DNA of 64,000 nt, taken from the NCBI GenBank assembly GCA_000200715.1, contig DP000238.1, positions 1,142,593 to 1,206,592 of the forward strand, written 5' to 3'. Below, piece by piece: positions 53,245 to 58,214 of the stretch. Made by a program: the position numbers and the translations under genes. Under the pieces are notes generated by a model that did no database searches, was not told where the DNA came from, and saw only the letters and a program-made list of their open reading frames with translations. This DNA is from Cenarchaeum symbiosum A. Its GTDB lineage: Archaea; Thermoproteota; Nitrososphaeria; Nitrososphaerales; Nitrosopumilaceae. Position 1 is the stretch's first letter. The number at the start of each line of letters is the position of its first letter.

Positions 53245-53457
53245 AACAGAAGCCATGCAGCAACTGCCCGATCGTTTTTCAGGTACCTACTGGGCTTTTT
53301 GGAGTTCGTTGATCAAAAGCGGTACAGGTATTCTATACATGCCAGTCTTGGCTGGAAAAATAAATTGAAGATCGGCGGATCCTATCTACGAGCGCCTGCC
53401 TGCTTTTCACTTGACTAGCCGGAGTACTTCGTCTGCAATTTCTGTATAGCTAGGCAT
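53245..53457 (-). pseudogene. decayed copy of the SDH-type serine protease gene
   Basis: The start is intact: MPSYTEIADEVLRLVK against MPSYAEIANDVLRLME of the gene at 53898-54830, then TGA (53407-53409). Further along, IGSADLQFIFPAKTGM and LLINELQKAQ match IGPTDPQFIIPTRTGM and LISEFQEAQ in the intact copy. About 110 codons are deleted between these parts, and a second stop is present. The residues that should hold the catalytic Ser are in the deleted part. Confidence 0.75.
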
Positions 53458-53629
53458 TTATGTAGTTGAGATACATGTCCGCGGGATCCGTTTCATAGTC
53501 TGAATCAAACACCGGATCATTCCTTCTCTTTAATTCCTTAAATGCCTGATGCAGTTCAAGCAGGACGGTTACATCATCGCGTTTGATTATCCGTTCTGTT
53601 GTTTCAGCTTTTTGCTCATTCTCATCCAT
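53450..53629 (-). CDS. paralogue of the small protein partner of the protease (59 aa)
   Basis: Reads MDENEQKAETTERIIKRDDV then TVLLELHQAFKELKRRN and ends LNYINA. It is a clear paralogue of the gene at 54823-55005, which ends FNYINA. Charged, helical, no cysteines. As in the intact module, its stop overlaps the ATG of the following protease frame (AATGCCTAG). Though the protease copy is broken, this frame is intact and may still be made. Confidence 0.7.
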   Translation of the reverse strand: MDENEQKAETTERIIKRDDVTVLLELHQAFKELKRRNDPVFDSDYETDPADMYLNYINA

Positions 53630-53897
53630 GATTATAGGCTACGGTATTTGACTAAAAAGGTTTCCATCTTCATGAGTCGTGTGTTTGCCGTGGAATTACC
53701 TACCGGGGGAACATAAAAAAATGAGTCATAAACAGCGCACTGCATCCACCGTGGACCCATGAGACAACGAGCCGGCAGCGGTGCACAGCACCGAGTACAA
53801 CCCCGCAATCGTCTTATCCAACGACCTGCCCTATGAAAACTCCAGACGGATCTCTTCCGGGCATCCAGTACCCATGTATGTGAGAATTCTGACTATC

Positions 53898-54830
53898 TTA
53901 CCGTGGTGTTGGCAGTGTCTCAACGACGGTATTACCGAGGTGATTCATGATAATTTTGTTGACTGGAGTATACTGAAACATGGTATTTGCCGCATGAAAT
54001 ACTGACAGCACCAGATCTTGAAATTCTTGTTCATCTTCCAGATCAGTTACTTTTAAGCCAATCCTTTTACATTCTTCTCTCGATATGCGCCTTCCATGAC
54101 TGTGATATTTTTTAGAGGAAGACATTATTTCTGATATTTTTTTTGACTTTTTTACCGCTGCAGACTCGTTCTCAAACATGTATCTAGCCAGCCATTTTTG
54201 TACAAGTTCCACACTTAGCTTCTGGCTGCTAATGCATTTTTGAATTAGCCCGGGAGGATATTGCCCTAACAGTGGAAGCCATGCGCCGAGCCTCCCCGGG
54301 TGTTTTTCTGACACCGACTGTGCTTCTTGAAACTCGCTAATTAGAAACTGTGCAGACATTATGTGCATGCCGGTCCTGGTTGGAATAATAAATTGGGGGT
54401 CGGTGGGACCTATCGATGAGTGTTTACCCATTACCAGGCAATTCGATGAGCATGCAAGCATCGCAGCTGCCGACATCGCGGCATATGGGATAATGATCCG
54501 GACATTTTTAAATTTTGCACGTATGTATGAGACGATTGCTTCGGTGGACTCGACGGAGCCCCCCGGACTGTGGAGTATTAAATCTAATTTCTTAGTCTTT
54601 AAATCACGCATCATCCTCATAAATCCATACAGGTCACCATTTGTTATGAGAGCTTCATTAGACGTATGCGCTTCGTCCGTTATCCAGTTGGTCGCATACA
54701 GTATTGTATCCCTCCCCGAATACTGTTGCAATTTTGAAAGATAGTCGTGAAGTACTACACCAGGTGCCTGCTCACCGACTGACTCCATTAGTCGAAGTAC
54801 GTCGTTTGCTATTTCTGCGTAACTAGGCAT
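53898..54830 (-). CDS. SDH/ClpP-class serine protease (310 aa)
   Basis: Protease of the serine dehydrogenase proteinase (SDH, PF01972-type) group. Visible elements: LDLILHSPGGSVESTEAIVS (residue about 87), the serine nucleophile region IIPYAAMSAAAMLACSSN, then IGPTDPQFIIPTRTG and an Asn/Lys-rich C-terminal helix bundle. There is no transmembrane segment or signal, so it acts in the cytoplasm or at the inner face of the membrane. Its ATG overlaps the stop of the small upstream gene by 8 nt, which points to coupled translation. The gene is AT-rich against the core genome. Confidence 0.8.
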   Translation of the reverse strand: MPSYAEIANDVLRLMESVGEQAPGVVLHDYLSKLQQYSGRDTILYATNWITDEAHTSNEALITNGDLYGFMRMMRDLKTKKLDLILHSPGGSVESTEAIVSYIRAKFKNVRIIIPYAAMSAAAMLACSSNCLVMGKHSSIGPTDPQFIIPTRTGMHIMSAQFLISEFQEAQSVSEKHPGRLGAWLPLLGQYPPGLIQKCISSQKLSVELVQKWLARYMFENESAAVKKSKKISEIMSSSKKYHSHGRRISREECKRIGLKVTDLEDEQEFQDLVLSVFHAANTMFQYTPVNKIIMNHLGNTVVETLPTPR

Positions 54831-55005
54831 TTATGTAGTTGAAATGACTACCCGCGGGAATCATACCATAGTCTGTGTCGTATGACTTGCCTTTTTTCTT
54901 CATCAATTTCTCATATTCCTCATGCAGTTCGAGCAGGATGGCCATGTCACTACGTTTGTTCGTCTGTTTTGTTGTCTCGGGCTTTTGGTCCATATTATTA
55001 TCCAT
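54823..55005 (-). CDS. small acidic-basic partner protein of the SDH protease (60 aa)
   Basis: Sequence MDNNMDQKPETTKQTNKRSD then MAILLELHEEYEKLMKKKG and a FNYINA end. The middle is an amphipathic helix. The stop overlaps the ATG of the protease gene. A paralogue stands in the same position before the broken protease copy, so the pair is a unit. It could be an adaptor, inhibitor or substrate. TATA element (TTTTTAAAGG) about 20-29 nt before the ATG at 55005. Confidence 0.7.
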   Translation of the reverse strand: MDNNMDQKPETTKQTNKRSDMAILLELHEEYEKLMKKKGKSYDTDYGMIPAGSHFNYINA

Positions 55006-55109
55006 GCTAGTAAAGGACTATGTTCCTTTAAAAAGGTTCGTGATTTTAATTTCCAAGTGTTTGCCTCGCAATTTCCTCCAAGGCACATGAAAAACGGGCC
55101 ACAGGCAGA

Positions 55110-55170
55110 GCACAGCATCCGCTGGGGACCCATGAAATAAGCCCCCGGCGGTGCACAGCATCCGCTGGGG
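55110..55170. repeat. 18-bp direct repeat near the rRNA operon end
   Basis: GCACAGCATCCGCTGGGG occurs at 55110-55127 and 55153-55170. A similar sequence (GGTGCACAGCA) is present in the duplicated module flank near 53780, so these repeats belong to the duplication. Confidence 0.8.
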
Positions 55171-55188
55171 GCTCAATAAAAAAATGAG
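55141..55188 (-). terminator. rRNA operon terminator hairpin with T-runs
   Basis: On the minus strand after the 23S processing stem come TTTTTTTATT and then the hairpin GCCCCCAGCGG / CCGCCGGGGGC (10 of 11 bases pair), followed by TTATTTC. This is the expected position for the rRNA transcript's end. Confidence 0.6.
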
Positions 55189-55203
55189 TCATCATGCATA
55201 GTC
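55189..55203 (-). repeat. 3' half of the 23S rRNA processing stem
   Basis: TCATCATGCATAGTC is the perfect reverse complement of 58226-58240 on the far side of 23S. The long stem would bring together both ends of pre-23S, where EndA-type cleavage of bulge-helix-bulge motifs is expected. Confidence 0.85.
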
Positions 55204-55214
55204 TCTATGTAAAT

Positions 55215-58214
<3,000 letters not shown>

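What the first reader, a model, noticed from the sequence alone, without database searches (positions are those of the whole stretch)
53245..55192. Duplicated two-gene module: small protein plus SDH-type protease
In both copies the small gene's stop overlaps the protease ATG (AATGCCTAG). One copy has lost its protease by deletion, while its small gene stays intact. Small partner plus protease in translational coupling, kept when the protease is lost, suggests a regulator-effector or defence unit that I do not know as described.
Basis: partly seen in the sequence, partly recalled or inferred. Interest (0 to 1): 0.75.

Follow-up and report, generated by a model that had tools for sequence, protein, structure and literature searches.

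The report
Two-gene ClpP-like protease–partner module
A small gene that overlaps a ClpP-like protease gene in this archaeal genome belongs to a widespread but little-described two-gene unit, found in many bacteria, archaea and temperate phages and sometimes sitting inside known anti-phage defence operons, so it is probably a mobile defence-type protease with its own small controller.

Summary
On the minus strand, next to the 23S rRNA gene, lie an intact pair (60-aa ORF overlapping a 310-aa ClpP/SDH-fold protease by 8 nt) and a tandem copy whose protease is wrecked (345-bp internal deletion, lost 3' end, stops) while its small ORF is open.

The pairing is real and general. Of 66 bacterial and archaeal relatives of the protease, 56 have an abutting 50-110-aa ORF, against 19% of other long ORFs in the same loci and 0 of 20 canonical SDH proteases. 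Forty-two of these partners align (helix, PG-V/I, helix, Ser/Thr tail), are under purifying selection, and occur almost only beside the protease.

The module is patchy and mobile: a low-GC island here, cargo positions in temperate phages, and embedded between hmaA and hmaB of Hma defence operons in bacteria and archaea. Once the partner is fused to a HicB antitoxin domain. PADLOC, Pfam and NCBIfam have no model for the partner.

Not supported: retention of the orphan small gene by selection. Best reading: a defence/conflict protease with a dedicated small regulator. Activity is untested; the window's own small protein is only a tentative family member by sequence.

The parts
54823..55005 (-). 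small partner gene of the intact pair (60 aa, P0001)
   Evidence: TATA-like box upstream; tentative profile match to the partner family (hhalign E 2.6e-4, probability 42%)
53898..54830 (-). ClpP/SDH-fold serine protease of the intact pair (310 aa, P0002); conserved D66, S120, S138, W184, H245, K292 all present
   Evidence: (phrog_11747, 2.6e-78)
53450..53629 (-). small partner gene of the degraded tandem copy (59 aa, P0003), open but without a working protease
53410..53457 (-). first 16 codons of the wrecked protease in copy A
53258..53385 (-). second piece of the wrecked protease (matches P0002 residues about 140-181), with a stop
55027..55034 (-). TATA-like box (TTTTTAAA) of the intact pair, 22-29 nt before the small gene's ATG
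   Evidence: read directly; same spacing at the third locus
53651..53658 (-). corresponding, altered TATA-like box (TTTTTAGT) of copy A
   Evidence: read directly
53250..55200 (.). low-GC island (43-46% against 57-62% in the protein-coding flank) holding both copies, just beyond the 23S rRNA 3' end
   Evidence: LSU rRNA 55218-58207 -

Best explanation
The window holds a horizontally acquired, tandem-duplicated and half-decayed copy of a widespread two-gene module: a soluble ClpP/crotonase-fold serine protease (effector) and a dedicated 55-75-aa partner translated just before it. Shown: the pairing, co-inheritance and coding constraint in the wider family, the protease fold and invariant Ser, and a patchy, mobile, defence-associated distribution. 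Inferred: the module works in conflict with phages or other mobile elements. The partner is made first, binds the protease through its two-helix part, and its conserved Ser/Thr-rich C-terminal tail engages or blocks the substrate groove, so that the protease is quiet until infection disturbs the complex, after which it cleaves host or phage proteins. In the window one pair appears intact; the second has lost its catalytic part and its small gene is probably a relic.
For: Abutting partner ORF in 56/66 genome loci against 52/280 control ORFs in the same loci and 0/20 canonical SDH proteases. Partner HMM: among 22,243 ORFs, hits at E<0.2 are upstream of the protease except one (seeds included); in 30 whole genomes 21/22 hits are directly upstream. 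Mirror-tree r=0.80, 0/2000 permutations. Partner dN/dS about 0.07-0.2 in close pairs. AF2: protease pLDDT mostly above 92, partner two helices; Foldseek: ClpP fold. Embedded in Hma operons: hmaA-pair-hmaB in L077 (Gammaproteobacteria) and L080 (Methanoregula); pair-hmaB in L063 and L050; hmaA-pair in L066 and L076. Neighbour ORFs hit 310 PADLOC families against 59 for random ORFs from 20 of the same genomes. Phage cargo positions. HicA-[HicB::partner]-protease in L103. Rare: 8/398 and 8/369 genomes for close relatives. Low-GC island.
Against: No activity, toxicity or phage assay exists for it. PADLOC has no model for the protease or partner. The window's own pair is not in a defence island. 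The AF2 model leaves the Ser/Thr tail disordered (residues 47-63 pLDDT <50), so docking into the active site is not supported by structure. The window's small proteins miss the PG motif and score only marginally against the partner profile. The PADLOC neighbour counts are family counts, not gene counts.
Confidence: 0.55

Rival explanations
1. Toxin-antitoxin-like addiction module: the protease is toxic by itself and the small upstream protein is its antitoxin; it persists by addiction on mobile elements, with defence only a by-product.
For: Upstream small gene with overlapping start, mobile and patchy distribution, HicB antitoxin domain fused to the partner behind hicA in L103, HicAB next to the pair in a Porphyromonas phage; protease broken while the partner stays open in several relatives and in the window.
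Against: The protease is a five times larger target, so it breaks first by chance; orphan partners are very rare; no toxicity data.
Confidence: 0.35
2. The partner is a substrate adaptor or activating cofactor rather than an inhibitor: it delivers a target (phage protein or an antitoxin such as HicB) to the protease; the HicB fusion would then be a degron on an antitoxin.
For: HicA-[HicB::partner]-protease operon; conserved flexible tail typical of tags or docking peptides.
Against: Only one fusion seen, in a metagenome assembly; no substrate known.
Confidence: 0.3
3. It is a phage capsid-maturation protease with a small scaffold protein, scattered by prophage decay.
For: Weak similarity of the protease to PHROG head-maturation proteases; present in temperate phages.
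Against: The specific PHROG (11747) has unknown function; in a Mu-like phage the pair lies between gene C and lysozyme, apart from the head genes, in a lambdoid prophage within the replication-to-antitermination region, in Gordonia phage near the integrase and immunity region; several copies are embedded in defence operons instead.
Confidence: 0.04
4. Housekeeping quality-control protease (SppA, NfeD or SDH type) with an accidental upstream ORF.
For: Same fold superfamily.
Against: Rare and patchy; the partner is conserved and constrained; canonical SDH proteases lack it (0/20) and mostly start with a hydrophobic N-terminus, which these do not.
Confidence: 0.06

Closest known systems
Canonical SDH proteases (PF01972; NCBIfam NF047768 Clp_like_SDH)
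   Same: ClpP-like fold, AMSA(A/G)T nucleophile motif and GPxDPQ motif; PF01972 gathering score met
   Different: 62.8 bits against the NF047768 cut-off of 250; no hydrophobic N-terminus; additional conserved C-terminal region with invariant His and Lys; has a small partner gene that canonical SDH proteases lack (0/20)
PHROG 11747 (protease) and PHROG 25714 (66-aa protein), both of unknown function
   Same: P0002 matches phrog_11747 at 2.6e-78; one phage clade's partner matches phrog_25714 at 1.8e-41
   Different: PHROGs lists them separately with no function; the pairing and its spread in cellular genomes are not recorded there
Hma-embedded candidates (HEC) of PADLOC
   Same: several pairs lie between hmaA and hmaB of Hma operons, the placement that gives HECs their name; one such operon also carries HEC-01B
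   Different: no HEC or other PADLOC model matches the protease or the partner; the window's pair is not inside an Hma operon
Type II toxin-antitoxin modules such as HicAB
   Same: small upstream gene, overlapping cistrons, mobility, one HicB::partner fusion
   Different: the downstream gene is a ClpP-like protease, not an RNase, and toxicity is untested
ClpP and phage prohead proteases
   Same: fold and catalytic Ser position
   Different: about 15-20% identity, longer C-terminal domain, no recurrent Clp ATPase neighbour, not in capsid operons

Membership tests
SDH_protease (Pfam PF01972) | score above the curated gathering cut-off | tested here: met
   53.2 vs 31.3 bits
Clp_like_SDH equivalog (NF047768) | score above the curated cut-off of 250 bits | tested here: not met
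   62.8 bits
PHROG 11747 | full-length match to the profile | tested here: met
   residues 25-304 to profile 6-286 of 290, E 2.6e-78
Partner (small-protein) family defined here | sequence match of the window's small proteins to the helix-PG-helix-S/T-tail profile | tested here: inconclusive
   window proteins score about 2 bits by HMM, hhalign E 2.6e-4 with probability 42%; position, size and overlap agree
Hma-embedded defence candidate | module lies between hmaA and hmaB/hmaC (tested on relatives) | tested here: met
   met for relatives L077 and L080 and one-sided for L063, L050, L066, L076
Hma-embedded defence candidate | the window's own copy lies inside an Hma operon | tested here: not met
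   its neighbours are the 23S rRNA gene and a few small ORFs
Hma-embedded defence candidate | anti-phage activity | not testable with these tools
   needs phage challenge
Type II toxin-antitoxin system | toxin lethal alone and neutralised by the antitoxin | not testable with these tools
   needs expression assay
Phage prohead protease | location in the capsid operon with scaffold and major capsid genes | tested here: not met
   cargo positions in Mu-like, lambdoid and Gordonia phages; only the Porphyromonas phage has it among structural genes
Active serine protease of the ClpP superfamily | conserved catalytic Ser and partner residues | tested here: met
   S120, H245, D66 and K292 invariant in 129/129; which of them form the catalytic triad was not established

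The most novel reading that the evidence does not exclude
A widespread, so far uncatalogued class of anti-phage modules in which a ClpP-fold protease is held inactive by a tiny co-translated partner whose Ser/Thr tail occupies the active site, acting alone, on temperate phages, or plugged into Hma (BREX-related) operons, and able to be wired to other toxin systems through partner fusions such as HicB::partner.
Probability: 0.3. Interest if true: 0.85.

Novelty: new variant of a known kind. Interest (0 to 1): 0.62.

Why it matters
The pair is spread over many bacterial and archaeal phyla and temperate phages, has a clear catalytic component and sits in some defence operons, yet the libraries and papers searched hold no functional description and no model for the partner. 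If it is a defence protease with a dedicated mini-regulator, it gives a compact two-gene system, testable in laboratory E. coli, and a link between proteolysis, Hma/BREX-type restriction and HicAB toxin-antitoxin modules.

Tried and rejected
Single-sequence scan of genome contigs found nothing; the alignment was needed. Orphan retention by selection: tested with dN/dS and a genome-wide orphan count, not supported. Literature: PF01972, 'serine dehydrogenase proteinase', ClpP-like plus anti-phage or defence island, Hma/HEC, guilt-by-embedding gave no description of the pair; a BREX/Hma survey does not mention ClpP and an archaeal defence survey does not mention proteases. E. coli genomes hold no close DNA match to the Klebsiella copy. 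A fused partner-protease model was predicted by reading the in-frame stop as glycine to see docking; the tail stayed disordered and no inter-domain error was available, so no docking claim is made. A third conserved gene in the module was sought by clustering neighbours; only HmaB recurs at a fixed place. Broken proteases beside open partners in relatives were considered as evidence of toxicity but rejected, because the protease is the larger target and many loci come from metagenome assemblies.

Full report
What is in the window. The window is bases 1142593-1206592 of a 2,045,086-bp single-contig archaeal genome; from memory this size matches Cenarchaeum symbiosum, which I did not verify. On the minus strand, just beyond the 3' end of the 23S rRNA gene (LSU 55218-58207), lies a two-kilobase island of 43-46% GC next to protein-coding sequence of 57-62%. 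It holds a 60-aa ORF (54823-55005) whose stop overlaps the start of a 310-aa protease (53898-54830) through the string ATGCCTAG, and a tandem copy in which the small ORF (53450-53629, 59 aa) is open but the protease is reduced to its first 16 codons and one later piece with stops. Repeat offsets (1373 falling to 1028) show a 345-bp internal deletion that removes the catalytic serine, plus loss of the 3' third. A third, complete copy elsewhere in the genome (46% identical protease, L002) also follows directly on an upstream ORF. All three upstream ORFs have a TTTTTA-type TATA-like box 22-29 nt before the ATG, as for leaderless archaeal genes (read by eye).

What the protease is. It matches SDH_protease above the Pfam cut-off but not the NCBIfam equivalog for canonical SDH proteases, and matches PHROG 11747, of unknown function, over its length. 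Alignment of 129 relatives leaves D66, S120, S138, W184, H245 and K292 invariant, all present in the window's copy. AlphaFold2 gives a confident core for a relative and Foldseek finds ClpP and SppA. Which invariant residues make up the catalytic triad was not established.

Is the small partner real? Yes for the family. Relatives found with an alignment (396 in genomes, 144 in viral contigs, the best 80 of each kept) come from many bacterial and archaeal phyla. 56 of 66 usable genome loci have a 50-110-aa ORF abutting the protease start; of 280 other long ORFs in the same loci 52 do; of 20 canonical SDH proteases none does. Several of the ten exceptions do have a recognisable partner, inside an ORF outside the length or position limits. 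42 partners align: helix, P-G-[VI], helix ending in a Tyr-rich stretch, then an I/V-[ST]-[ST]-[ST]-[ND]-S-type tail. A profile built from them picks, out of 22,243 ORFs, almost only the ORFs upstream of the protease (the seeds themselves are included). In 30 whole genomes a second profile gave 22 hits, 21 directly upstream of the protease. Close pairs show strong purifying selection (dN/dS about 0.07-0.2), and partner and protease distances correlate (r=0.80, no permutation as high). The window's own small proteins are divergent: no significant HMM score and a marginal profile-profile match (E 2.6e-4 for one comparison, probability 42%). Their membership rests mainly on position, size and overlap.

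Is the orphan small gene kept? Not shown. The two small genes differ with dN/dS 0.48 (pN/pS bootstrap 0.37-1.03), no more constrained than the two dead protease pieces (pN/pS 0.29 and 0.47). Most of that divergence may predate the protease's death, and 59 codons can stay open by chance. Elsewhere orphan partners are very rare; one in L071 lacks its N-terminal half and start.

What it does. Close relatives are rare and patchy: 8 of 398 genomes sampled from the phylum at high score and 8 of 369 in the class of G409. In phages and prophages the pair mostly sits at cargo positions: between gene C and lysozyme in a Mu-like phage, near the integrase and immunity region in Gordonia phage BeeGee, after HicAB among structural genes in a Porphyromonas phage, in the replication-to-antitermination region of a lambdoid prophage, next to the integrase in a Pseudomonas element. 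In cellular genomes the only neighbour family at a fixed place belongs to Hma: hmaA-pair-hmaB in L077 and L080, pair-hmaB in L063 and L050, hmaA-pair in L066 and L076. L077 continues with HEC-01B and hmaC, and L080 with a TIR-like protein and hmaC. Other immediate neighbours include type IIG enzymes and a DpdE/ZorD-like helicase. Neighbour ORFs hit 310 PADLOC families, random ORFs from 20 of the same genomes 59; this is a family count and only a rough enrichment. Hma is a published candidate defence system (PMC8565338), since treated as BREX-related and with experimental support for its helicase (PMC12839542); several Hma-embedded candidates have shown antiviral activity (PMC12988326). In Poribacteria locus L103, a HicA gene is followed by an ORF that joins a HicB antitoxin domain (PF15919, 1.9e-13) to the partner, overlapping the protease. 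It is one case, in a metagenome assembly, and a lost stop codon cannot be excluded.

Mechanism. The order partner-then-protease with overlap fits a regulator made ahead of its effector. I favour a protease kept quiet by the partner and released on infection. The conserved, extended Ser/Thr tail is the obvious candidate to engage the active site, but the predicted model leaves it disordered, so that step is inference. An adaptor or degron role, suggested by the HicB fusion, is nearly as likely. The rivals overlap with the best explanation (a defence module may also be toxin-antitoxin-like), so the confidences do not sum to one.

Verdict. The pair is a real, widespread and apparently uncatalogued two-gene module, most likely a defence or conflict protease with a dedicated small partner; in the window one pair looks intact and the other is a relic.

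Noticed in passing
L103:5395-6978: HicA toxin gene followed by a HicB-domain::partner fusion ORF overlapping the protease; possible wiring of a toxin-antitoxin system to the protease.
   Followed up: partly
L071:686-811: A second, orphan partner remnant (41 aa, no N-terminal half) 5 kb from the pair, whose protease carries an in-frame stop.
   Followed up: partly
window 53725-53790 and 55098-55183: Imperfect 43-nt direct repeats containing GCACAGCATCC upstream of both copies, possibly related to the insertion or duplication.
   Followed up: no
L002:1177-1491: The upstream ORF of the genome's third protease copy is 104 aa, has an internal imperfect repeat (..KIGQLAMSRDESA.. / ..KLGQMTLSRYESA..) and ends in the same frame as the protease, separated by a single TGA.
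   Followed up: no
G399 and G419: A Bacteroidota and a Rhodobacteraceae genome carry 6 and 5 protease-family matches respectively, including partial and weak ones.
   Followed up: no
L063:4621-5523: 301-aa protein without any PADLOC or Pfam match between hmaC and the pair in an Hma-like operon.
   Followed up: no
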